DNA of 64,000 bases from Sutcliffiella horikoshii DSM 8719 (GTDB lineage: Bacteria > Bacillota > Bacilli > Bacillales > Bacillaceae_I): contig LQXN01000061.1 of assembly GCA_001648575.1 (NCBI GenBank), positions 1-64,000 of the forward strand. The letters run 5' to 3'. Below the pieces are notes generated by a model. The model did no database searches. It was not told the origin of the DNA and saw only the letters and a program-made list of their open reading frames with translations. This document shows, one piece after another, positions 17,378-29,890 of the stretch; the stretch's first letter is position 1, and every line of letters starts with the position of its first letter. A program made the position numbers and the translations under genes.

Positions 17378-18842
17378 AAGTCCTTAATATTGTGTAAAAT
17401 TCCTTTCATGTGTTTTCAACTGTTAATAGGATGTATCGGTTATTCTCCTCACATTTTTTGAGCGAAACTTCCATGATTTTATCTTTTCATTGCCAGGGTG
17501 GGCTGTCAAAGGCTCCTCACTTTGACAGCTCATTCTGGCAATGAAACAATACATGATGGAAGTTCACGCAAACAATAGAGATTAAATGCTAAAGGCCTTT
17601 CTTTTAGCGTAAACTGTTTGTTGATAATGAAGTAAGACAGCTCCCACTAAACGAAAAGCTGATTGGGTGTTAGGGAAAATTCGTATCACTCTTTCTCTTC
17701 TACGAACCTCCTGGTTTAACCTTTCTAAACAATTTGTACTCCTAATATGAGGACGTATGTTTTGAGGGTATTCCATATATTGAATGGTATCTTCAAAACC
17801 TTCATCAAGAACTTTTAATGCTTTTTCGTATCTTGGGTTCTCAGCAAATTGGCTCATAAGTTCCTCTTTGAAATTTCTCATATCTTCAATGGTTACAGCT
17901 TCAAAAATACGCTTAATCATCGTTCTAATTTCTACAGCATCTTTTTTAGGAAGTTTCTCAAAAATATTTCGTTTGAAGTGTACGTTACATCTTTGCCAGC
18001 TAGTGCCAATAAATTCTCGTTGAATGGCTTTTTGTAGACCTTGATGAGCGTCAGAGACAACGAGCTTAGGAGACTGAAGTCCACGTGATTTAAGTTGTTG
18101 GAAAAAGCGACTCCAACTGTCATAGTTCTCGACATGATCAACTTGAAGACCAAGAATCTCACGTTTATTTTCTTCAGTCAGAGCTGTGGCAATATAGATA
18201 GCTTTGGAGACGACACGATGGTGCTCACGCACCTTAGTATACATAGCATCCACAAAAATAAAAGGGTAGTAAGCGTCATTAAGTGGCCTCTTTGCCCAAT
18301 CATTAACGATAGGGTCTAGTTTTTGGGTAAGAGAAGATACAAACGATTTTGAAACATTCTCTCCACAAAGCTGTTCTACAATATGGGTGACCTTACGAGT
18401 AGATACACCGTTTATCACCATTTCTACCATAGAGAGGACGAAGGCTTGGTCACAACGTGAGTATTTTTCAAAAACGGAAGGTGAAAATTCCCCATTTCGA
18501 GTGCGAGGTACTTTAAGCTTTAGTTTCCCGATACTCATAGTGAAATCACGTTCATAGTAGCCATTACGATAATCTAGACGCTCAGAAGAGCGCTCATAAG
18601 CAGCAGCATGTAAGTATTCATCTCTTTCTTTTTCCATATATTCATTTAGCACCAGAACAATGGCAGATCTAATTACTGCTTCCATATTAGAATTAATTAC
18701 TGCATCTTTTAAAAGGTCGATATCTAGGTTAAACTGTAATTGAGTCATTCTTATTCCTCTTCTCATTGTTTATCGTCGTTGAAAACAGTGTTGACAAGAA
18801 GGAATAAAATGACTCTTTCTTTTTACACAATTATATGGACTT
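17378..18842 (-). mobile_element. IS256-family insertion sequence
   Basis: About 1.46 kb with imperfect terminal inverted repeats: the left end AAGTCCTTAATATTGTGTAA (17378 on) matches the right end AAGTCCATATAATTGTGTAA (reverse strand, from 18842) with three mismatches, then AA. It encloses one intact transposase. I could not find a clean 8-bp target duplication, so the exact ends are uncertain by several bases or the flanks have been rearranged. Confidence 0.75.
17582..18748 (-). CDS. IS256-family (mutator type) transposase
   Basis: A 388-residue DDE transposase, apparently intact. The acidic triad is visible as FVDAMYTKVR (Asp about 165), LVVSDAHQGLQ (Asp about 231) and STNCLERLNQEVRRR (Glu about 340), with the family's RNGYYERDF block near residue 62 and the GVSTRKVTHIVE helix near residue 114. 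I start at the ATG giving MTQLQF because AGAGGAA is 6 bases upstream; six more residues are possible. Lengths and motifs are normal, so the element may still be active. Confidence 0.93.
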   Translation of the reverse strand: MTQLQFNLDIDLLKDAVINSNMEAVIRSAIVLVLNEYMEKERDEYLHAAAYERSSERLDYRNGYYERDFTMSIGKLKLKVPRTRNGEFSPSVFEKYSRCDQAFVLSMVEMVINGVSTRKVTHIVEQLCGENVSKSFVSSLTQKLDPIVNDWAKRPLNDAYYPFIFVDAMYTKVREHHRVVSKAIYIATALTEENKREILGLQVDHVENYDSWSRFFQQLKSRGLQSPKLVVSDAHQGLQKAIQREFIGTSWQRCNVHFKRNIFEKLPKKDAVEIRTMIKRIFEAVTIEDMRNFKEELMSQFAENPRYEKALKVLDEGFEDTIQYMEYPQNIRPHIRSTNCLERLNQEVRRRERVIRIFPNTQSAFRLVGAVLLHYQQTVYAKRKAFSI

Positions 18843-19878: not shown

Positions 19879-20943
19879 CTAAATTAAACTTTCTAGGATC
19901 CCTTCCAACCTATCCAATTCTTCATTGGATACCATCATATATTTGCACTTGCCGCTCCGCAGGTAACTATAGATGATTTGCGCCTTATCGATTTCATAGC
20001 GGCTGACCTGTTGTTCAAGTGCTTGGGAATCTAGAATATTTCCACCCAACCAACCAGATATCTGTGATTCTATGTTTGTAAGCACACTTTTCGAACTGAT
20101 ATCCTCCAGCTCAAGCACCTCACTGAAAAGCACATCCGTCCTCCTGATTAAAAAGAGCTTCACTTTTTCTTCATCAAGCTTTTCTGCCACTAGCATAACA
20201 TGGTTGCCTTCGGTGAAATCCATCACTTCCTCTTTTTGCAAAAGAGATTGTAAGGATTGGATGTAGTTCCGGTATTGGGCTGCGCGTTCAAAGGCAAGGG
20301 CTTCTGCATGCCGTTTCATTTGATCTTGCATATCTTCGAGAAGCCTCGAATCCGTTCCGTTAAGGAGGGAGACAAACTGTTCCACTATTGTGTTGTATTC
20401 TCCGACCGCCTTGCCGCCAAGGCAGATCCCACGGCACAGGCCAAGGGAATAGTTCAGGCAGGGGGAGCCGTTAATGGCAGGGTTGGAGCATTGGAGGAGG
20501 TAAACATCCTTCAGCCCGAGGATGGCCCGGCTGATCGTTTTTTTGCTTGTATAAGGTCCGAAGCTGAAGCCGTCTTTCCCTCGCAGGGGCTGGGTGGACA
20601 TGCGGATCCGGTAGAGCCTGCCCACTTTGCGGATTGTCAGGTAGAGGAAGGCTTCTGGTGTTTTCATCTGACGATTATATTGGGGACGGATTTCCTGGAT
20701 GAGCTGCCACTCAAGCAGAAAGGCTTCAAATTCTGTGTCGGTCTCGACCGTCTCAAGATCGCGGATATGTTTGACGAGTTTTCTGACCTTTGGCGTGTGG
20801 GTGGTTGTACTTCTAAAATAGGATTGCACCCGATGCCGCAACCGTTTGGATTTTCCGACATAGATGACTTGGCCAGCGGAGTCTTTCATCAGGTAGACCC
20901 CAGGCGCAGCGGGGAGCTCTTTAACTTTTTGAGAAAGACTCAT
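19879..20943 (-). CDS. UvrC/Cho-like GIY-YIG nuclease lacking the RNase H-like half
   Basis: A 354-residue protein, against about 600 for UvrC. It has a GIY-YIG domain (PGVYLMKD..., VIYVGKSKRLRHRVQSYF, catalytic Glu in FLLEWQLI, about residues 14-90), a middle region with four cysteines (QCSN...PCLNYSLGLCRGIC, about 152-174), and a UVR-like helix pair (about 200-232). It then ends without the helix-hairpin-helix and 5'-incision endonuclease domains. This matches the layout of E. coli Cho, which makes the 3' incision in nucleotide excision repair. AGGAGA favours the second ATG (20943). It is divergent from the coiled-coil/McrBC-like operon. Confidence 0.82.
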   Translation of the reverse strand: MSLSQKVKELPAAPGVYLMKDSAGQVIYVGKSKRLRHRVQSYFRSTTTHTPKVRKLVKHIRDLETVETDTEFEAFLLEWQLIQEIRPQYNRQMKTPEAFLYLTIRKVGRLYRIRMSTQPLRGKDGFSFGPYTSKKTISRAILGLKDVYLLQCSNPAINGSPCLNYSLGLCRGICLGGKAVGEYNTIVEQFVSLLNGTDSRLLEDMQDQMKRHAEALAFERAAQYRNYIQSLQSLLQKEEVMDFTEGNHVMLVAEKLDEEKVKLFLIRRTDVLFSEVLELEDISSKSVLTNIESQISGWLGGNILDSQALEQQVSRYEIDKAQIIYSYLRSGKCKYMMVSNEELDRLEGILESLI

Positions 20944-20993
20944 GGTCATTCTCCTCTCTAGGAATAAAGTTCTATGTTTAAATTTTCATAACC

Positions 20994-21022: not shown

Positions 21023-21093
21023 GAAAAGGGTATTTACCTAATAGATTACCAAAGAAAATAAGGGATGAACAACAATTAAAGGGGGTCATTGCA

Positions 21094-22179
21094 TTGAGCA
21101 GAGAAACGTGGAAAAAAGTATTCAGTACGATTCCGGATATGGAGCTGGTGAAACTGGTCGAAATTTGGTCGATTCAGGTAAAAGGCTTCCGTACCATCAA
21201 TCAGGAAAATATCAAAAAGGCAAGGGCGTTGGTCGTCGGAGAGGCGTTGAAGCCGCGGAATCTGAAGATGATTAAAGCCTATTATACGATAACGGACGAA
21301 GAGGCAGATGAACCTGATGGAAATAAGGAAGAGATCACACTTGAAGCATTGTTGGATATATATGAGGAGGGCAAAGAGCTGCATCTCATTTTAGGGGGGC
21401 TTTATGCAAGCGAGGAAGAGGAGATGGAGAAGCTTGCAGAGGAGTTTGAGAATGCGTTGTTGGAAAAATATAAGACAAGTGACTTGGGCAGTCTGATAGA
21501 TAAAGAGAATGAGAATGAGAAAGTCGTTCCTGAGCCTAAAGGGATGAAAGAAAAAGCCGGCCCATCTGAATGGGAGAAAAAGTGGAATAAATCAGAAGAG
21601 AAAAATAAGGATCTTCGCACGAAGGTAAGTGAGTGGGAGAAGCAGTATTCCCAGTTGAAGCAACAGCTGAAGGATGAAAAGCAGGCAATGCTGAGTGAAA
21701 AGCAAAAGCTTCAGCAGGAGCTTGGAGTGGAGCGGTCCCAGCATCGGGAAACGATGGAAAATAACGAAAAGACCTATGAGGAAAACAAACATCTGAAAGC
21801 GGAAAATGCCAAGCTTAAGGCGGACAACTCGCACCTGAATGCATTGCTTCTTAAGCACCAGCAGGAAGTGGCCTTCACCAATCAGGATGAAAACCAATCA
21901 AAACAACACGGTGAAGCAGATAAAAAACAAGTACTGCTTGTGGGTAATCCTAAAAATAAATTAACGGAAAATTCAGCAAACCATACATTTCAGGTGTTGG
22001 AACTGAAGGATATACCTATTGCGCTTGAGGAAGGACAGTTGGAAAAGTTCGATGAGATCTGGGTGATGACATACCTTGTTCCACCACAAATGAGGAAAAA
22101 AATAAAGCGTATGACCCAAAAGGATATTATGGAATTTACTGATTTTCCGACAATGAAACGTTATATAGAGAAAGGGTGA
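21094..22179 (+). CDS. Coiled-coil protein, first gene of McrBC-like operon
   Basis: A 361-residue protein I do not recognise as a named family. Residues 1-130 are a compact acidic/helical N-terminal domain. About 145-265 is a strongly charged coiled coil (EWEKKWNKSEEKNKDLRTKV, later KLQQELGVERSQ, NKHLKAENAKLKADNSHLNA, with a leucine heptad). About 285-361 is a small alpha/beta domain beginning KQVLLVGNP and containing FDEIWVMTYLVPPQMRKKIK. The start is TTG behind AAAGGGGG. It lies 7 bases before the AAA+ gene, so the two are co-expressed. The arrangement recalls coiled-coil specificity partners of McrBC-type systems; the function is inferred only. Confidence 0.75.
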   Translation: MSRETWKKVFSTIPDMELVKLVEIWSIQVKGFRTINQENIKKARALVVGEALKPRNLKMIKAYYTITDEEADEPDGNKEEITLEALLDIYEEGKELHLILGGLYASEEEEMEKLAEEFENALLEKYKTSDLGSLIDKENENEKVVPEPKGMKEKAGPSEWEKKWNKSEEKNKDLRTKVSEWEKQYSQLKQQLKDEKQAMLSEKQKLQQELGVERSQHRETMENNEKTYEENKHLKAENAKLKADNSHLNALLLKHQQEVAFTNQDENQSKQHGEADKKQVLLVGNPKNKLTENSANHTFQVLELKDIPIALEEGQLEKFDEIWVMTYLVPPQMRKKIKRMTQKDIMEFTDFPTMKRYIEKG

Positions 22180-22186
22180 TGAATAA

Positions 22187-24214
22187 ATGAACAAGGTTTG
22201 GGAAAATGACCTGGTTGGAGTGCTTGCGGATGTTGATCAAAGCGAGCTGATCTACAGGGATACAATTCTGATAAATAAACAAGACAGCCTGCAATTTTTT
22301 GTGCGGATTATTTCGCAGCCTGCTGATAGTTTTCCGAATGTGAAGGCTGTAACGGGGTTTTATTCTGATTTGGAAAAATGGGGTTTTGAAGACGACTACT
22401 TGCAACCGGAATTTATCCGTAAAGAAAAGTTGCGGGAATGGCTTGCCGATAGATTGTTGATTTTTAAAGTCGAAAAGCGAATCCGTTACAACCATGAAGA
22501 AGTCTACAACATGTTCCAGGTTCGGGTGATGCCTAAGCTTCCTAGTTATAACAAGGACTTGAAGCTTATCCCTGTTCCAATCTTCAGCCAACAGGTAAAT
22601 GGGTTGGAAAAGGACGAGTTCGTCACTCGCCTTGCTTTGAAGAAATTCGTTGGGCGGGTAGAGGAGGTTTCCCATGAGGAAAATGATACACCGCCGGTTG
22701 TGCTGTGGAGGGAGGAAGCGGAAGAGGAAGAGCGCTTCTTTTTGTTCGGGATGTTTGAAAAGCATCAATATGCACATGGCGGCTTCAGTCTGGAAGTACG
22801 GGACAATTTAAAAAGCCTCGAGTTAGTGGAGGATTGGCTGGATGAATGCTACCTGACAGATGAAAGCCCAAATGTGGCTTTTGTGCCAATTGAGCTTTAC
22901 CAAAGGCTTCTCGAGTTAGTGGAAGATGCAGAACTTGTTACCATGAACCAGGAAAGTAAGGAAGATCATGAGGTCTCAGAGAAGTCTCTTCATACTGGGG
23001 AGAGTAATATTATCCTGGATTTAAAAGCCAAGCCGGGGGTTTCTGTTTCGGTATTGGAAAAACCTGCAGGGATGGATCTATCAGGTTTTTCCCTTATCCC
23101 GGAAGTGAACGAAAAGGAGCAAGAGTTCCTTGAACTCCTATATAGCCACACACAGGATGCGGGGTTGATTTACCGCAAAGAGAACCTGATCAACTTCCAC
23201 ACTTCGATGAAGTCATCTTCGCTTGTCATTTTATCGGGGATGAGCGGTACAGGGAAAACTAAACTGGTGGAGCTGTACAGTCAGTCCCTAGGATTAAAAG
23301 GAGAGCAGCTGACGGTCATTCCCGTGAGTCCTTCCTGGACATCTGATTCTGATCTTATCGGATATGCGGATACCCTGAACATGGTGTACCGCCCTGGTGA
23401 CTCCGGTCTGATCAATGCGCTGCGCAAGGCGGAGGATGATAAAGATAAGCTTTATATCATTTGTTTTGATGAAATGAACTTGGCACGGGTGGAGCATTAT
23501 TTTTCTCAGTTCTTATCCATATTAGAGATGGATCATGGGAAACGGGTGTTGCGATTATATAACGATGACCTGGAGAGCAGACTTTACAATTCAGCGCAAT
23601 ATCCGCCGACCATTGTCATCCGTGAAAATGTTATGTTTGTAGGAACGGTCAACATGGATGAATCCACCTATCATTTTTCCGATAAGGTTTTGGACCGTGC
23701 CAATGTATTGTCCCTCGATGTGATGCCGTTCTATCAAATGAAGCAGCTTCCGGAAAAGAAAAAGGGGATGGTGGCCAGAGCGGATGAGGTTGATTTTGAA
23801 ACCTTTGAGTCTTTTCAATACAAGAATCGCAGTCTGAATCTCCATGATGATGAGCTTGCGCTGTTATGGGAAATCCATCAACTGATGCAGGACGTGAATA
23901 AGCAGGTCGGTGTGGGACCCCGCATAGTGAAGCAGATCGATCAGTATTTAGGGAATCTGCCGGTACAAAACTATATTTTACGGGAGGATGCCTTTGACCT
24001 GCAGATGGTCCAACGTATCCTGACGAAGGTAAGGGGGTCGGAAGATCAATTGCGGGATCTTTTGGGGCGCTATAACCGGGAAAAAGATATCGTGGAAAGC
24101 AGCCAGCTGATCCGGTTATTTGACCGCTACTCCCATGTTTCCGCCTTCAGAGAAAGCAGGCATGCCGTAAAACAAAAAGCGAAAGAGCTGAAATATAATG
24201 GATACTCCATGTAG
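22187..24214 (+). CDS. McrB-like AAA+ NTPase
   Basis: A 675-residue protein. The N-terminal half (1-320) matches nothing I know and probably carries target recognition. The C-terminal half is an McrB/MoxR-clade AAA+ domain: Walker A GMSGTGKTKL (about 349-358), Walker B IICFDEMNLARVEHY (about 424-438), and sensor-1 region FVGTVNMDESTYHFSDKVLD (about 483-502). E. coli McrB has an NTAD motif for GTP use at the last site; here it reads NMDE, so nucleotide preference may differ. AAAGGGTGATG precedes the ATG. It overlaps the nuclease gene by 17 bases, indicating a stoichiometric complex with it. Confidence 0.85.
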   Translation: MNKVWENDLVGVLADVDQSELIYRDTILINKQDSLQFFVRIISQPADSFPNVKAVTGFYSDLEKWGFEDDYLQPEFIRKEKLREWLADRLLIFKVEKRIRYNHEEVYNMFQVRVMPKLPSYNKDLKLIPVPIFSQQVNGLEKDEFVTRLALKKFVGRVEEVSHEENDTPPVVLWREEAEEEERFFLFGMFEKHQYAHGGFSLEVRDNLKSLELVEDWLDECYLTDESPNVAFVPIELYQRLLELVEDAELVTMNQESKEDHEVSEKSLHTGESNIILDLKAKPGVSVSVLEKPAGMDLSGFSLIPEVNEKEQEFLELLYSHTQDAGLIYRKENLINFHTSMKSSSLVILSGMSGTGKTKLVELYSQSLGLKGEQLTVIPVSPSWTSDSDLIGYADTLNMVYRPGDSGLINALRKAEDDKDKLYIICFDEMNLARVEHYFSQFLSILEMDHGKRVLRLYNDDLESRLYNSAQYPPTIVIRENVMFVGTVNMDESTYHFSDKVLDRANVLSLDVMPFYQMKQLPEKKKGMVARADEVDFETFESFQYKNRSLNLHDDELALLWEIHQLMQDVNKQVGVGPRIVKQIDQYLGNLPVQNYILREDAFDLQMVQRILTKVRGSEDQLRDLLGRYNREKDIVESSQLIRLFDRYSHVSAFRESRHAVKQKAKELKYNGYSM

Positions 24215-26135
24215 CACCAAGTCTTTCTCTGTTGTTTTTACGCATATCTTTCAGAATGGCACAAGGGAGGAAACAGAGGTTGCAAGCTTTGTGGAGCACC
24301 TGTCAGACTGGGATGAAAAAATGCACAGTTACACGGAACTCAGGGAGAATGTAAATCTTGAGTTGAGTTTTCGCTGTGAGGATGCAGGTGCAAGATGTTA
24401 TATGGATGGATTTGACGGGCTTATGGATGGCCGGTTGATGATGGATCATGAAAATGAGGAAAATTATCTTGGATGCAATGGACAGGTGACACTTTATAAG
24501 CACTCCACATCAGACAACTATTATCCTTATATTCCAGGACTGTATAGCTTGCGTGTGGAAACGTCTGACGGGAGGACTTTTTATACTCTGGTGAAGGTCA
24601 TTTCCAACAGGTTGTTCGGCGATCAGTTGGAAAGGATGAGGACCGAGGTTGAAGAAAAGCTGAAGGGTGCAGCCTTGGAAGTTATACGGAAGCAGCACAG
24701 CCCAAAAAGCTTGGAGGCGCTGCGGATCAATCCGGTGCTGTTCCGGCAATACCAAGTCTTGCAGCATTATTTTGCCGATATTTATGCCATTGTTTCGGAT
24801 TTGGCGCAAAAGGTGAGGTCGTCCGTTGCAAAGGAATATCAAATGGAATCTGCTGATAAGCCTGCACATGTGGATGTGGTCTCCATCCAACACCGCCTGA
24901 AGCGTCCGGACACGATGAATCTGGTGAAATCGGTGCAAAAGCGGATCAATTATGACCTGCCGGAAAACCAGATGCTGAAGGCCATTTTGGAAAAGTGGAT
25001 AAGGCTCCTGCAGGAATTTGTGGAAACGATGGACAGGACCATCAAAGGTTTGACTGTAAAAAACAGCAAGGACTATTCCTTTTCCATCTCGCTGCCACTG
25101 GAAAGAAAGCGACGGTTGGTGGAAGAGCTGAAGGAATACAGGGGCAAGGCGATGCGCATGAATGGTGCGCTGAGTCTTGTGAAAACAAGTCATTGGTATC
25201 AGGAGGTTTCCTACAGGAAGGCCTTATCTGTTCCAAATGTAATGTTTGTGGATGTACGGTACAGAAAACTTTATCAAATCGACCAGGCGCTTGATGGGGA
25301 TGAGCTTCCTGTACATACCGCACTCGGGCAACAATGGAAGCGGACGGCTCAGCTTTATGAAATCTGGGGCTGGCTGCAGGTGGTCGCGGTTGTGGAGGAT
25401 CTGGGTGGATTTTTAAGGGGACCGGATATGAAACCTGATGACCAAGATGGAGAAGGCAAATCAAATGGAAATGGGAATGAAAGTGACAGTAGTGCTAAAA
25501 AGCAGATGAGACTTGGTGATAGGCTTGTTCAAGGATGGAGTTGGGCTGAAAGAGGCAACGGGGAGAGAGTGGGAGACAGGTTGGTCCGAGGTTCTGGACT
25601 CTTTGGACGGGGAAGGTCAACTGATGATAAAGATGTGCCAACTGCAAAGGACAACATGATTATCTTTACTTTTGGGGAAGCACGCGTGCATATTACGTAT
25701 GACGGGACAATCCCCGGCAACCCGGAAGTGACCGAAAAGTTCGGAGTCCCTATTTACACGACAGGGACGAATAACAATCCCGATGTAAGGCTGGACTTGT
25801 TCAAGCGGGAGGTCTATATCGGCACCATCATGATTGATATGAAATACCGCAAGAAACATGCCCTGACAGACTCGATGCGTCAGCTGACAAGCTATGCGGA
25901 CAATGTAAGGTCGCCATATATTTATAGTAAAAAACGTTGGCAAAAGTACCGCCCCGTTCATCAGGTACTTGTTCTGTATCCGGAAAAGCATGGAGGAATG
26001 GAGGTAGATGAACTTGACGGCAGAAGCATCAGCCTCGTTCCCTTGACTCCCGCCGAAGACAAGACCGTTTTCCAGAAGACCCTCCGCCGCCTTGTGGAGG
26101 AAATGCTGCAGGAGGCGGTAGAGGAAGGAATCTGA
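24198..26135 (+). CDS. McrC-like nuclease with DUF2357-type N-terminal region
   Basis: A 645-residue partner of the preceding AAA+ protein. The N-terminal and middle parts are helical and fit the DUF2357 region found in long McrC homologues (for example YYPYIPGLYSLRVE near 115, PENQMLKAILEKWIRLLQEF near 260). A charged Gly/Ser linker (about 418-480) leads into a PD-(D/E)xK nuclease core at about 500-580, whose active-site strand pair reads VRLDLFKR then GTIMIDMKYRKKH (Asp and Lys as catalytic residues). The first codon overlaps the end of the AAA+ gene. Predicted role: DNA or RNA cleavage driven by the AAA+ motor. Confidence 0.83.
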   Translation: MDTPCSTKSFSVVFTHIFQNGTREETEVASFVEHLSDWDEKMHSYTELRENVNLELSFRCEDAGARCYMDGFDGLMDGRLMMDHENEENYLGCNGQVTLYKHSTSDNYYPYIPGLYSLRVETSDGRTFYTLVKVISNRLFGDQLERMRTEVEEKLKGAALEVIRKQHSPKSLEALRINPVLFRQYQVLQHYFADIYAIVSDLAQKVRSSVAKEYQMESADKPAHVDVVSIQHRLKRPDTMNLVKSVQKRINYDLPENQMLKAILEKWIRLLQEFVETMDRTIKGLTVKNSKDYSFSISLPLERKRRLVEELKEYRGKAMRMNGALSLVKTSHWYQEVSYRKALSVPNVMFVDVRYRKLYQIDQALDGDELPVHTALGQQWKRTAQLYEIWGWLQVVAVVEDLGGFLRGPDMKPDDQDGEGKSNGNGNESDSSAKKQMRLGDRLVQGWSWAERGNGERVGDRLVRGSGLFGRGRSTDDKDVPTAKDNMIIFTFGEARVHITYDGTIPGNPEVTEKFGVPIYTTGTNNNPDVRLDLFKREVYIGTIMIDMKYRKKHALTDSMRQLTSYADNVRSPYIYSKKRWQKYRPVHQVLVLYPEKHGGMEVDELDGRSISLVPLTPAEDKTVFQKTLRRLVEEMLQEAVEEGI

Positions 26136-26216: not shown

Positions 26217-26255
26217 GCGGCGCTGAGGAAAAAGTTTTCTTTCTTCAGCGCCGCT
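26217..26255 (+). terminator. terminator of the McrBC-like operon (bidirectional)
   Basis: GCGGCGCTGAGGAAAAAG, short loop, CTTTCTTCAGCGCCGC, then TATTGTTT. It is flanked by GAGGCTGGACAAAACTAG (26191 on) and ATTGTCTAGCCT (26279-26290), which are themselves inverted. The GAGGCTGGACA block looks like a dispersed Firmicutes repeat. It may also serve the convergent diguanylate cyclase gene. Confidence 0.8.
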
Positions 26256-26283: not shown

Positions 26284-27873
26284 CTAGCCTATGACCTCGA
26301 AATCATGCTTATAAAGTTCCACATAGTTTCTCCCTTTCCTTTTAGCACTATAAAGGGCTTGGTCCGCCTCTCTCATTAGTGTCTGCAAGGTCTGACTAGC
26401 ATCTCCATTATCGGTTGAGGTCGATGATATCCCGAAGCTTGAGGAAACACGTATATCTACTTGGTCATAAGGCATGACCGTCTGGAATATCTTCATACGA
26501 ATTACTTGAGCAAGCTCATATGCGGCGATTAAAGAGGTATTTGGCAAGCATATGATAAATTCCTCCCCGCCATACCGCCCCATGATGTCATCGGTTCGAA
26601 GGCTGTCCTTTACTACTCTTGAAATACCGGTTAACACCATATCTCCCACTTCATGCCCAAATGTATCATTCACCTGTTTGAAATGATCGATATCAAACAT
26701 GATGATAGAAACATTCCCCCCATTCAAGATGAGGGACTCAATGGTCCTTTCGGATTCCTGCATAAAGAAGTTACGATTATATACTTGTGTCAATCCGTCC
26801 ATACTGGCGAGGATTTCCAACTTCTCCTGCAAATTAACTCGTTCTGTCACATCAACAAAAGTAATGATTTTTCCTATATCATAATTGTTTTTATTTCTTA
26901 CAGTCGAAAACCGAATATTATAGAAGGCATTTTTCCCGGCTTTGCAGCATTTATAATCGCATTCCTTTTCAAGTAATATTATTTCGGCAAGCAGGCCTGT
27001 TCGATCTACTACATCAAAGATGGATTTTCCGATCACTTGCGCGTTTAATGTTGGAATGGCTTCGAGCAAAGCACTGTTATAATCGACGATCCTATCATTT
27101 TGATTTAATACCACGACTCCATCTTTCATGTTTTCAAATACTGTATCCCTGGCAATGGGGGTCACATTAAACATTTGATAGGATAAGAGTGCCGCGCCAT
27201 GGAAGATAAAGGAGACACTCATCGAGACCGGGCCTAGATCAAGACCATATGGACTCATACCGTTGATATAAAAATAGTTTGCTATGATTGGAAAAATGAT
27301 GCCTGCCACCATCAATATGATTTGCATGCGGAACTGAAATAATTTTGTTTTCTTCAATTGCATCAGTAAAGTAATTACCCCGCTCATTAAGCACAAAAAT
27401 AGAAAGATTGAATGAACGTAAAACCAAGGGCCATGCTCTAACATTAAGATAGGGTATGGACTGTCGTTATTGATTTGGATTGATTTGTAATATAGATGAT
27501 GGAGTTCATTTGTGCCATGCATGAAGATAGTGACAATAGGAAAGGAGAATAAGACATAGTAGAGCCATTGTTTCGGCTTTTGTCCAACATACTCTATGCA
27601 CATCAATAGGACGAACGCAGGAATAAACGGCATGAAAAGATACTCTACATTCAACCAGAATTTCATTTGCTCAAGTGAAGTGCTGGCTAGTTCAAAGGCA
27701 TATGAAAATGTGAAAACAGCTGAAAATAATGTTACTAACATAAACAGTCTTGCACCGGGAGCATCCTTAAGCCTGAAATACGAAAAAAAACTTAATAAGG
27801 AGCTTAGAAGCCCTGCTATTATAACGATCAATATGTATACGATTAATTCATTAGGCATGACTTCCAACTCCAT
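26284..27873 (-). CDS. Membrane-bound diguanylate cyclase (7TM-PAS-GGDEF)
   Basis: A 529-residue protein. Residues about 10-230 contain seven hydrophobic segments like the histidine-kinase N-terminal 7TM sensor module. A PAS domain follows (about 240-350, FENMKDGVVVLNQNDRIVDYN ... ITFVDVTER), then a GGDEF domain (about 360-525) with the start motif DGLTQVYNRNFF, the substrate Asp in MFDIDHFKQVND and the signature GGEEF. It should synthesise cyclic di-GMP in response to a membrane or ligand cue. The start could also be the ATG five codons later. It is monocistronic, convergent with the nuclease operon. Confidence 0.92.
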   Translation of the reverse strand: MELEVMPNELIVYILIVIIAGLLSSLLSFFSYFRLKDAPGARLFMLVTLFSAVFTFSYAFELASTSLEQMKFWLNVEYLFMPFIPAFVLLMCIEYVGQKPKQWLYYVLFSFPIVTIFMHGTNELHHLYYKSIQINNDSPYPILMLEHGPWFYVHSIFLFLCLMSGVITLLMQLKKTKLFQFRMQIILMVAGIIFPIIANYFYINGMSPYGLDLGPVSMSVSFIFHGAALLSYQMFNVTPIARDTVFENMKDGVVVLNQNDRIVDYNSALLEAIPTLNAQVIGKSIFDVVDRTGLLAEIILLEKECDYKCCKAGKNAFYNIRFSTVRNKNNYDIGKIITFVDVTERVNLQEKLEILASMDGLTQVYNRNFFMQESERTIESLILNGGNVSIIMFDIDHFKQVNDTFGHEVGDMVLTGISRVVKDSLRTDDIMGRYGGEEFIICLPNTSLIAAYELAQVIRMKIFQTVMPYDQVDIRVSSSFGISSTSTDNGDASQTLQTLMREADQALYSAKRKGRNYVELYKHDFEVIG

Positions 27874-28032: not shown

Positions 28033-29013
28033 CTACCTGATCGCCGGCACCTTAATTTTAACCGTGAATTCTTCGTTTTTATACACAAAGTCAAGGAAGC
28101 CTTGATTCTCTTCCACGATATCCTTAATTATTTTTGTCCCTAAACCCTCGTGACTTCCGCCTTTTGTTGTATGGCCGTATGAATGGAAAAGTGAGTCCAA
28201 TACATTGGCAGGAACAGGCAGGGAATTATTTTTGCAGATGAGCATATATAGGCCGCTGCGTTTAGAAAACTGTAATGTCAGCGTGGCTTGGGTGTTTCGC
28301 TCGCGCTGCCATTCTTCACACGCATCAAGACTGTTGCTTAAAAGGTTGCCAAGGAGCCCGACCATCTTCTGATCTGCAATCGGTAACGTAGAAAGCGGCA
28401 AATCGAGATCATAAACGACACTGACCCCTGAGGCTTTTCCACGACGGTACATTTGATGGAGTATACCTGCCACCACGCCGCGCTCTCCTTTAATAGAGTA
28501 GTTCGTCTCTTCGTAGTTTTCTACCAAAGTATCCAGGTATAGTTTGGCTTCTTCCGGTCTTTTGTCCTCAAGCATGAAGTGGACGGCTGATACATGCTTG
28601 AGAAAATCATGCCGCTCGCTTCTGACGATGCGGAAGGTTTCATTTATATGCACCGACTGCTCCTCATGCTGTGCGATGTCCCTTTTTAGCTGAGTGATTT
28701 GGCGTCCAATCCGCAAACGTACATATTCGATGCCAACATACACGCCCATTACCACAACCGAAAACCAAATGTGGAGTGGAAAGGCTAGAGAGACTATGAC
28801 CAGGAGCAATTGTACAACTGCCAGGACACTATTGATTGTTTTGCCTAAACTATTGATTTCGACGATGATTTTCCTCTGAAAATAAAAAGAAACGGTACCT
28901 GAGACCAATAGGCTCCAATGGAAAGGCACCCATTCACCGGTAATTGCGTGCAAATGTAAAAACAGGAGCGCTCCAAGCGCCAACCAGTATATGGAGGAAG
29001 TTCTCAACATCAT
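28033..29013 (-). CDS. natK: Sensor histidine kinase NatK-like
   Basis: A 326-residue kinase. Three to four hydrophobic segments are in the first 100 residues, followed by a cytoplasmic Spo0B/AgrC-type dimerisation helix with the phospho-acceptor His in RSERHDFLKHV (about residue 135) and an HATPase with N-box LLGNLLSNSLDACEE (about 222-236) and GLGTKIIKDIVE (G-box, about 293). LytTR-partner kinases have this build. It follows natR by 91 bases. Assignment to NatK comes from the whole natRK-natAB neighbourhood, known in B. subtilis to control Na+ efflux, more than from the sequence itself. Confidence 0.8.
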   Translation of the reverse strand: MMLRTSSIYWLALGALLFLHLHAITGEWVPFHWSLLVSGTVSFYFQRKIIVEINSLGKTINSVLAVVQLLLVIVSLAFPLHIWFSVVVMGVYVGIEYVRLRIGRQITQLKRDIAQHEEQSVHINETFRIVRSERHDFLKHVSAVHFMLEDKRPEEAKLYLDTLVENYEETNYSIKGERGVVAGILHQMYRRGKASGVSVVYDLDLPLSTLPIADQKMVGLLGNLLSNSLDACEEWQRERNTQATLTLQFSKRSGLYMLICKNNSLPVPANVLDSLFHSYGHTTKGGSHEGLGTKIIKDIVEENQGFLDFVYKNEEFTVKIKVPAIR

Positions 29014-29104
29014 TCATTCCTTTTTAGAAAGCGGATTTCGTAAATCTTGTTGCTTTTTTGTCATCTTATTTCAATGGTTCTATAAAGTATGAGCAATTTA
29101 CCTT

Positions 29105-29803
29105 TTAAAAGTAGTTTTCTTGCAGGAAGTCCACCTTTTCTTTTGTTATCATCGCCTGCTCCTCCATGCCTTCAAATGTGACGATATAGGAGTTCTTCGC
29201 ATAGAGGGAGAAGTTTTTCACATGATGTATGTTTATGATGAAGGAACGGTGAGAACGGAGGAAATCACGTTCTCGCAGTTCCCCTTCCAGCTCATTCAAT
29301 GTTTGATAGGTTTTAATTGGGCCGCTTTTTGTAAAGATGGTGGTGGAGCGACCAGACCGCTCGATAAAGACGATATCCTTCTTCTGGACAATATGGATGT
29401 CGTTTTTTTGCTTAAGGTAAAGCCGGCCGGCAATATCAGCAGACTTGTTTTTCTCAAGCAGCCTTTCAATACTTTTGACAAGCCTGTCCTTTGGATATGG
29501 CTTCATGATGTAGTCATGCACATTCAGCTCAAAGGCATGCACCGCATAACCGCTCGTTCCGGTTACAAAGATGACGGAGATATTCAATGCATGTGAGTGG
29601 ATGATGTCTGCAAGCTCATAGCCTGAGAGATTCGGCATTTCAATGTCTGCGATTAACAGGTCTACCTCTTCTTTTTTTATATGTTCATAGGCTTCTTCGG
29701 CAGATTGGGTGGAAAAGACGATCTCCACATTCGGCATGCCTGTTACGATGCCGTTAAGTTTATCCAAATCTATGTATCTGTCATCTACAAGACCAACCCT
29801 CAT
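29105..29803 (-). CDS. natR: LytTR response regulator NatR-like
   Basis: A 232-residue regulator. The receiver domain has the acidic pocket DDR (residues 7-9), phospho-acceptor Asp in LLIADIEMP (about 54), Thr in VTGTSG and Lys in MKPYP (about 102-106). A LytTR DNA-binding domain follows (about 130-230, IVFIERSGRSTTIFTKSG, FLRSHRSFIINI). I start at MRVGLVDD (29803) with AGGTGAGG 8 bases upstream; a 12-residue extension is open but unlike family members. It is divergent from natAB, and the intergenic region carries two direct repeats that fit a LytTR site. Confidence 0.86.
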   Translation of the reverse strand: MRVGLVDDRYIDLDKLNGIVTGMPNVEIVFSTQSAEEAYEHIKKEEVDLLIADIEMPNLSGYELADIIHSHALNISVIFVTGTSGYAVHAFELNVHDYIMKPYPKDRLVKSIERLLEKNKSADIAGRLYLKQKNDIHIVQKKDIVFIERSGRSTTIFTKSGPIKTYQTLNELEGELRERDFLRSHRSFIINIHHVKNFSLYAKNSYIVTFEGMEEQAMITKEKVDFLQENYF

Positions 29804-29890
29804 TGTTTTCGCCTCACCTTGTTGTATATTGCATCCCATTTCAAGGGTATTTGCCTTTATTTTACCATTAAAAAGTGCAGAATAGTCATT

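What the first reader, a model, noticed from the sequence alone, without database searches (positions are those of the whole stretch)
21094..26135. Three-gene coiled-coil / McrB-like AAA+ / McrC-like (DUF2357) nuclease operon
Seen: three genes in a row with a 7-base gap then a 17-base overlap, encoding a 361-residue coiled-coil protein with N- and C-terminal domains, a 675-residue protein with Walker A GMSGTGKT, Walker B CFDEMNLARVEHY and the sensor NMDESTYHFSDKVLDRA, and a 645-residue protein ending in a PD-(D/E)xK core (IDMKYRKKH). Known: McrB/McrC pairs are type IV restriction systems, and DUF2357 occurs in long McrC homologues; coiled-coil proteins next to McrBC homologues have been proposed as RNA- or modified-DNA-targeting immune systems. 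Inference: this is a non-classical McrBC relative. The NTAD motif of McrB is replaced by NMDE, the McrB N-terminal 320 residues and both ends of the coiled-coil protein match nothing I recognise, and the locus lies next to an insertion sequence at a synteny break. Target and nucleotide used are open questions.
Basis: partly seen in the sequence, partly recalled or inferred. Interest (0 to 1): 0.82.

Follow-up and report, generated by a model that had tools for sequence, protein, structure and literature searches.

The report
Three-gene McrBC-like bacterial defence operon
This is a three-gene, defence-like bacterial operon of a kind already described from sequence (a Type I-B CoCoNuT), but here it has become a settled part of the chromosome in one genus, and its last two genes share a 17-base overlap that was found at every junction examined.

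Summary
In detail: three intact genes at 21094-22179, 22187-24214 and 24198-26135, with a 7-base gap and a 17-base overlap. 'Non-classical McrBC relative' is right, but the kind is in print: gene order, NxD-E signature (NMDE), a separate coiled-coil protein and a DUF2357 protein with intact PD-(D/E)xK match the Type I-B CoCoNuT (CnuA/CnuB/CnuC) of Bell et al. 2024. Its CSD, PYD/CARD and REC domains could not be confirmed here; the Ig-like one was not tested.

New here: (1) the trio holds one chromosomal site in 12 of 16 genomes of the genus under purifying selection; two relatives show the empty site and carry distant copies elsewhere; in the phylum it is patchy and also plasmid-borne. (2) The cnuC ATG lies exactly 17 nt before the end of cnuB in 38 of 38 junctions, whereas the cnuA-cnuB junction varies. 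cnuB codons just upstream are chosen to read as a Shine-Dalgarno sequence (GAG 20 of 21, expected 7.4, P=3.5e-9), pointing to built-in translational coupling. (3) The CnuA end domain shows no receiver-type phosphoacceptor aspartate. Defence function is inferred, not shown.

The parts
21078..21085 (+). Ribosome-binding sequence AAAGGGGG before the TTG start of cnuA
   Evidence: sequence
21094..22179 (+). cnuA: coiled-coil protein, 361 aa
21094..21246 (+). CnuA N-terminal helical module with a G-F motif shared by most distant homologues (published analogue: PYD/CARD-like; not confirmed)
   Evidence: AF2 pLDDT under 50
21568..21882 (+). CnuA coiled coil, residues 159-263
   Evidence: one long helix, pLDDT about 88-92 over most of it
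21931..22173 (+). CnuA C-terminal alpha/beta domain, residues 280-360, four strands; Thr326 follows the third strand
22187..24214 (+). cnuB: NxD-type McrB-like AAA+ protein, 675 aa
22187..22936 (+). CnuB N-terminal module (about residues 1-250), conserved in the family; fold not resolved
   Evidence: model pLDDT 48
23237..23260 (+). Walker A GMSGTGKT
23456..23485 (+). Walker B IICFDEMNLA
23651..23662 (+). NMDE = NxD-E signature (N, D, E invariant in 18 of 18 aligned proteins)
24182..24187 (+). Shine-Dalgarno-like AAAGAG formed by conserved Lys-Glu codons of cnuB, 10 nt before the cnuC ATG
24198..24214 (+). 17-nt overlap of cnuB and cnuC
   Evidence: 31 of 31 loci and 7 of 7 annotated plasmid copies
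24198..26135 (+). cnuC: DUF2357 + PD-(D/E)xK nuclease, 645 aa
24537..25037 (+). DUF2357 match (residues 114-280)
25407..25631 (+). Expanded Gly/Arg/Asp-rich linker between DUF2357 and nuclease (about residues 404-478)
25779..25847 (+). Nuclease core PDVRLD...IDMKY (residues 528-550)
26217..26254 (+). Terminator-like 15-bp stem after cnuC (the scan as a whole found 6 sites, 4.8 expected; this is the longest stem)

Best explanation
A Type I-B CoCoNuT: one operon for CnuA (coiled-coil sensor/scaffold), CnuB (NxD-type McrB-like AAA+ NTPase with an N-terminal recognition module) and CnuC (DUF2357 stimulator with an active-looking PD-(D/E)xK nuclease). Most likely mechanism: CnuB rings load on a foreign or modified nucleic acid through their N-terminal module; CnuC docks by DUF2357, stimulates NTP hydrolysis and cuts; CnuA clusters or gates the complex through its coiled coil and end domains. 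CnuC translation is tied to CnuB by a fixed 17-nt overlap with a Shine-Dalgarno sequence written in cnuB codons, which would hold the two subunits at a set ratio and keep free nuclease low. Shown here: gene anatomy, motifs, operon conservation, fixed overlap and codon signature, purifying selection, mobility elsewhere. Inferred: defence role, target (RNA or DNA), nucleotide used, complex architecture, coupling in vivo.
For: AAA_5, DUF2357 and PDDEXK_7 hits; E. coli McrB structures among the best PDB sequence hits of a CnuB profile. NxD-E invariant in 18 of 18. PD...(D/E)xK in 36 of 36 CnuC (32 by pattern; the other 4 in an alignment). CnuA-like gene or its pieces upstream in 11 of the 12 loci taken from the phylum scan, 7 by profile match and 4 by position and sequence pattern, L092 without; a gene of fitting size upstream in 7 of 7 intact plasmid copies (sequence seen for 3). 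Published definition of Type I-B (sections read). Defence company elsewhere: Mokosh/Iet-like (L026) and Wadjet III (L047); CRISPR I-C (L087) and a defence-type helicase (L090); on plasmids HsdR, Abi, HsdS and ABC-three-component genes. IS-bracketed copy on a lactococcal plasmid. Coupling.
Against: In this genus the locus behaves like core genome (fixed site, dN/dS like its flanks), and ten flanking proteins scanned with PADLOC gave only partial or generic matches (methyltransferase, ABC ATPase and three weak ones), no recognisable system. The CSD, YTH, PYD/CARD and REC-like domains that help define Type I-B were not confirmed. L092 and L029 have cnuB-cnuC without a CnuA gene beside them. The CnuB model is too poor to use. 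No published Type I-B reference sequence was at hand for a tree. Defence-gene company was scored on loci picked by eye, with no control rate; one of the five (L089) had none.
Confidence: 0.77

Rival explanations
1. A CoCoNuT-derived operon now doing a resident job (stress or nucleic-acid quality control) in this genus, no longer or not mainly anti-phage.
For: Same site in 12 of 16 genomes, the GIY-YIG gene divergently upstream in 12 of 12; dN/dS like flanking genes; Bell et al. [quoted passage not shown]
Against: No match in G014 (99% complete) or G010 (80% complete), and empty site in G005, the sister of carrier G009; patchy in the phylum and plasmid-borne; catalytic motifs kept.
Confidence: 0.2
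2. An ordinary DNA-cutting Type IV restriction system for modified phage DNA, with CnuA only an accessory.
For: Nuclease motif intact in 36 of 36; an N-terminal module on CnuB in the place of a specificity domain.
Against: NxD instead of NxxD; a conserved coiled-coil partner; E. coli mcrB-mcrC overlap by 1 nt, not 17; the published group is argued to act on RNA.
Confidence: 0.35
3. The constant 17-nt overlap is only inherited, not selected for coupling.
For: All copies share ancestry; once a start codon lies inside an upstream gene it is hard to move.
Against: The cnuA-cnuB junction of the same loci takes 15 values in 34 loci (starts partly my longest-ORF choices, and -4 is commonest, 14 of 34); CnuB proteins are down to 26% identical; synonymous choice at the Shine-Dalgarno codons departs strongly from each gene's own usage.
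Confidence: 0.2

Closest known systems
Type I-B CoCoNuT (CnuA/CnuB/CnuC), Bell et al. 2024, PMC11090510
   Same: Gene order, separate coiled-coil protein, NxD-E GTPase, DUF2357 + intact PD-(D/E)xK, Bacillota
   Different: CSD/YTH, PYD/CARD and REC domains not confirmed and Ig not tested here; the words Sutcliffiella, Shine-Dalgarno and translational coupling do not occur in the paper's main text, and its two mentions of overlapping frames concern other genes
Canonical McrBC of E. coli K-12
   Same: AAA+ motor plus nuclease partner; McrB among the best PDB sequence hits
   Different: NxxD signature (stated); no coiled-coil gene beside it and a 1-nt overlap
Second NxD McrBC in the same genome (G000:C3, L045: 855 aa + 815 aa)
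   Same: NMDE signature, DUF2357, PDDEXK_7
   Different: MrcB_N domain, 29-nt overlap; no CnuA-like gene noted directly upstream
Type I-B CoCoNuT of Staphylococcus aureus JSNZ, PMC12554148
   Same: Three-gene system classed as Type I-B
   Different: Lies on a CC88-specific island; no functional test in the passages seen

Membership tests
Type I-B CoCoNuT | Three genes in order: separate coiled-coil CnuA, CnuB, CnuC | tested here: met
Type I-B CoCoNuT | NxD (usually followed by E/D) in the GTPase | tested here: met
   NMDE; N, D, E invariant in 18 of 18
Type I-B CoCoNuT | CnuC = DUF2357 + PD-(D/E)xK with catalytic residues | tested here: met
Type I-B CoCoNuT | No coiled coil fused to CnuB | tested here: inconclusive
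   no long helix in the model, but mean pLDDT is 48
Type I-B CoCoNuT | CSD-like OB-fold (often YTH-like domain) at the CnuB N-terminus | tested here: inconclusive
   none for the window protein at E<=1; none among the 25 of 42 families shown for 18 members; hhalign against the genome's CSDs prob under 1%, low power
Type I-B CoCoNuT | PYD/CARD-like domain at the CnuA N-terminus | tested here: inconclusive
   helical, pLDDT mostly under 50
Type I-B CoCoNuT | REC domain at the CnuA C-terminus | tested here: inconclusive
   four-stranded alpha/beta model; the 50 fold rows shown name no REC; hhalign to 16 REC domains prob 0.1%; phosphoacceptor Asp missing by eye
Type I-B CoCoNuT | Ig-like N-terminal domain in CnuC | not tested
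Type I-B CoCoNuT | GTPase falls in the Type I-B clade | not testable with these tools
   published reference sequences not held
Canonical McrBC | NxxD signature | tested here: not met
   NxD
General housekeeping genes | Present in nearly all relatives | tested here: not met
   14 of 16 in the genus (12 at the site), but 13 of 398 with a strong match in the phylum sample

The most novel reading that the evidence does not exclude
In this CoCoNuT branch the motor-nuclease ratio is hard-wired in the gene sequence: cnuC can start only inside cnuB, at one fixed place 17 nt from its end, from a Shine-Dalgarno site spelled by cnuB's own conserved Lys/Arg-Glu codons, so that nuclease is made only behind a finished motor. 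CnuA is not a phosphorylated two-component receiver but an unphosphorylated sensor/scaffold. In Sutcliffiella such a system has passed from mobile defence to core genome.
Probability: 0.4. Interest if true: 0.55.

Novelty: new member of a known kind. Interest (0 to 1): 0.42.

Why it matters
CoCoNuTs are predicted from sequence; in the listings and passages seen no experiment on a Type I-B member appeared. This locus is compact and intact, and close relatives offer natural trio-less sites for comparison. The fixed overlap gives a marker for finding and delimiting these systems in unannotated DNA, and a direct test of how cells keep a nuclease partner in check. The missing phosphoacceptor, if borne out, argues against the published suggestion that histidine kinases control CnuA, at least in this branch.

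Tried and rejected
Structure of CnuB: AF2 from 8 sequences gave mean pLDDT 48; not searched against folds. CnuA: mean 63; the VIA search listed helical proteins, ribosomal chains and a designed Rossmann 2x2 fold, best Z 5.4; no receiver domain appears in the 50 rows shown, which excludes nothing. PDB profile searches: CnuC hit only a designed claudin, taken as chance; CnuA C-terminal domain nothing significant. The CnuB profile also hit UvrA through the P-loop.

CSD and REC profile tests negative but weak; one search was a control pairing, also negative. PADLOC PDC-M26A hits CnuB (2e-48) but also the other NxD McrB of the genome (4e-52), so it only marks the NTPase; CnuC hit no PADLOC model at E<=1. 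Viral-contig scans gave one trio (L056; L098 is the same contig) and three partial CnuB relatives (L099-L101) that I did not examine. Phage records: two partial hits. Defence-island reading of the window locus: rejected, no recognisable system among ten flanking proteins. IS-caused insertion of the trio: rejected, the transposase gene is not in the roughly 20-kb stretches around the other 11 core-site copies. The histidine kinase/LytTR pair downstream (28033-29839) as a partner of CnuA: not favoured, since it also sits at the empty sites.

The first codon count looked one codon off and returned 0 of 0; corrected. The first tree run failed on a thread option, rerun. The second CnuA C-terminal alignment (A12) was too divergent to use. 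The literature searches listed no paper on coupling of mcrB and mcrC that I recognised from titles; in the one listed I saw passages only, and they concern other restriction genes.
Full report
WHAT IS THERE. Protein B has AAA_5 (1.2e-7); protein C has DUF2357 (33.0 bits, over its cut-off) and a sub-threshold PDDEXK_7 (20.0 against 22.1 bits). A profile of 18 B proteins finds E. coli McrB structures (6hz4, 6ut6, 7vsr) among its best PDB sequence hits, beside UvrA P-loop matches. N489, D491 and E492 are invariant in 18 of 18. The PD...(D/E)xK motif of C is kept in 36 of 36 copies looked at, 32 by pattern and 4 by alignment; the incomplete or broken C of L091 and L094 was not counted.

WHAT KIND IT IS. 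Bell et al. 2024 (PMC11090510; sections 6, 7 and 8 read; passages; word search) describe an NxD clade of McrB GTPases, NxD usually followed by E or D, and within it Type I-B CoCoNuTs: a separate coiled-coil CnuA (PYD/CARD-like N-terminus, REC C-terminus), CnuB without a fused coiled coil (CSD, often YTH-like), and CnuC (Ig-like, DUF2357, PD-(D/E)xK), mainly in Bacillota. Gene order and the testable motifs match. Not confirmed here: CSD, PYD/CARD and REC; Ig-like not tested. The published reference proteins were not available, so placement by tree is open. A Type I-B system is also reported from S. aureus JSNZ, without a functional test in the passages seen. Literature searches showed no experiment on a Type I-B member in their listings; most subscription papers are not covered.

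WHERE IT SITS. The genus is Sutcliffiella by the titles of matching named records. In its 16 genomes each of the three proteins has a match in 14. In 12 the trio has the same place: divergent GIY-YIG/UVR gene upstream in 12 of 12, the histidine-kinase gene downstream in 10 of 12, in some with other genes between (exceptions G007 and G008). G004 and G005 have the kinase and GIY-YIG genes side by side with no trio between and hold distant trios elsewhere (L026, L027). G014 and G010 (80% complete) have no match. A tree of four flank proteins (14 genomes; G007 and G008 not included; one protein missing for G002) puts G005 beside carrier G009 (support 100), so the simplest history is one gain in the ancestor of that clade and one loss in G005; rooting on G004/G010/G014 is my assumption. 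dN/dS over pairs with finite dS: A 0.08-0.15, B 0.04-0.05, C 0.05-0.09; three flank genes 0.04-0.19 (several dS above 1, so rough). The transposase gene at 17582-18766 lies beyond two genes and is not in the stretches around the other 11 core-site copies, so the synteny break is not at the trio. Ten flanking proteins show no recognisable defence system; the downstream neighbours include a sensor kinase, a LytTR response regulator and an ABC transporter.

MOBILITY AND COMPANY ELSEWHERE. In 398 genomes drawn from the phylum, 41 match a CnuC profile at E<=1e-3 and 13 (own included) at E<=1e-30. Of the 12 other strong loci, 11 have a CnuA-like gene or its pieces upstream (7 by profile, 4 by position and pattern); L092 does not, nor does L029 from the relatives search; L087 and L094 have broken frames. 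Plasmids: 268 records match CnuB, 4 over at least 80% of it, all four Bacillota; eight regions were opened: seven intact trios and one broken by insertion sequences (E. faecium). On lactococcal p275A the trio lies between two ISS1S copies. Annotated restriction, Abi or ABC-three-component genes lie near it in four of the eight. Selected neighbours of five trio loci, picked by eye, were scanned with PADLOC: L026 Mokosh/IetA-like and L047 Wadjet III, L087 CRISPR I-C and L090 a defence-type helicase, L089 none. Suggestive only; no control rate was measured.

FIXED OVERLAP. In 31 of 31 loci an ATG in the cnuC frame lies exactly 17 nt before the end of cnuB (in 7 of them, L025, L029, L030, L092, L094, L096 and L097, another possible start also lies nearby). 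In 7 of 7 intact plasmid copies the deposited annotation gives the same 17 nt. Many of the 31 are close relatives; the 23 loci are more diverse. Controls: the cnuA-cnuB junction takes 15 values in 34 loci (most starts there are my first-start choices, so the largest overlaps may be overstated, and -4 is commonest, 14 of 34); E. coli mcrB-mcrC overlap by 1 nt; the other NxD pair of this genome by 29 nt. Upstream of the ATG the conserved Lys/Arg-Glu of cnuB mostly spells AAAGAG, AAGGAG or AGGGAG. Where Glu is present its codon is GAG in 20 of 21 loci (expected 7.4 from each gene's own usage, P=3.5e-9); six other conserved Glu columns give P from 0.013 to 1. Where Arg precedes it, the codon is AGG in 6 of 7 (P=6e-6). 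Two of 23 loci have Gln or Asp in place of Glu. The P values treat loci as independent, which shared ancestry weakens. This is best read as selection for a Shine-Dalgarno site for cnuC inside cnuB. Coupling itself was not measured. Bell et al. mention overlapping frames twice, for other genes, and the terms Shine-Dalgarno and translational coupling do not occur in that main text.

CnuA END DOMAIN. The model shows one long helix (159-263) and a four-stranded alpha/beta end (280-360; block pLDDT 51-83). The residue after the third strand, where receiver domains carry the phosphorylated Asp (recalled; conserved Asp seen), is Thr326 here. By eye, among 17 CnuA C-termini an Asp stands there in one (L028) and a Glu in one (L026); only the window protein has a modelled strand, so the register in the divergent copies is uncertain. 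hhalign to 16 receiver domains of this genome gives prob 0.1%. The fold may still be receiver-like; phosphorylation at that Asp looks unlikely in this branch.

MECHANISM. By analogy with McrBC (recalled): CnuB is the NTP-driven ring with a recognition module, CnuC the stimulator and nuclease, CnuA the scaffold or sensor. Target (RNA, modified DNA or both) is open. The fixed overlap would keep CnuC at or below CnuB. Main rival: a resident, non-phage role in this genus.

VERDICT. A new member of a known kind for which I saw no experiment, with two added facts that can be tested at once (built-in coupling; fixation in a genus).

Noticed in passing
24198-26135 (residues about 404-478): The linker between DUF2357 and nuclease is about 75 residues, Gly/Arg/Asp-rich with a repeated GDRLV; it is also long in L015-L017 but short in the other core-site copies, to judge by protein length (578-582 aa) and alignment.
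   Followed up: partly
L045 8392-13378 (G000:C3); also L046, L048, L049, L050: A second NxD McrBC pair (855 + 815-816 aa; MrcB_N, DUF2357, PDDEXK_7 in L045), alike in five genomes; flanks partly shared between L045 and L046 and otherwise different, so probably mobile. In L045 a NERD-UvrD gene and a PDC-M33A-type gene lie close by.
   Followed up: partly
17582-18766: Mutator-type (IS256 by recall) transposase gene between yaaC and the methyltransferase gene; marks a rearrangement seen only in the window genome among the 12 core-site loci.
   Followed up: partly
26284-27873: A 7TM-PAS-GGDEF gene lies between the trio and the histidine-kinase gene in the window genome; no match to it shows in the stretches of the other 11 core-site loci.
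   Followed up: no
19879-20949: GIY-YIG + UVR-motif protein, divergent from the trio, also present at 49-66% identity in relatives without the trio at this site (G004, G005, G010), so independent of it; G014 shows only a weaker match to a longer frame.
   Followed up: partly
28033-29839: Sensor kinase (HATPase_c_5) and LytTR response regulator beside the trio; Bell et al. note two-component genes in operons of some NxD McrB systems, but here the pair is on the opposite strand and also present at the empty sites.
   Followed up: partly
L056 4940-10041: A coiled-coil gene, CnuB and CnuC followed by a short MazG-like gene (recalled resemblance) on a 120-kb IMG/VR contig; whether the contig is a virus was not checked.
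   Followed up: no
L108 4641-11652: Trio bracketed by two ISS1S (IS6) copies on Lactococcus lactis plasmid p275A, with a putative abortive-infection gene nearby.
   Followed up: no
L115 843-13794: Priestia plasmid trio in a region with a HEPN-domain gene, a diadenylate cyclase and a nucleotidyltransferase gene.
   Followed up: no
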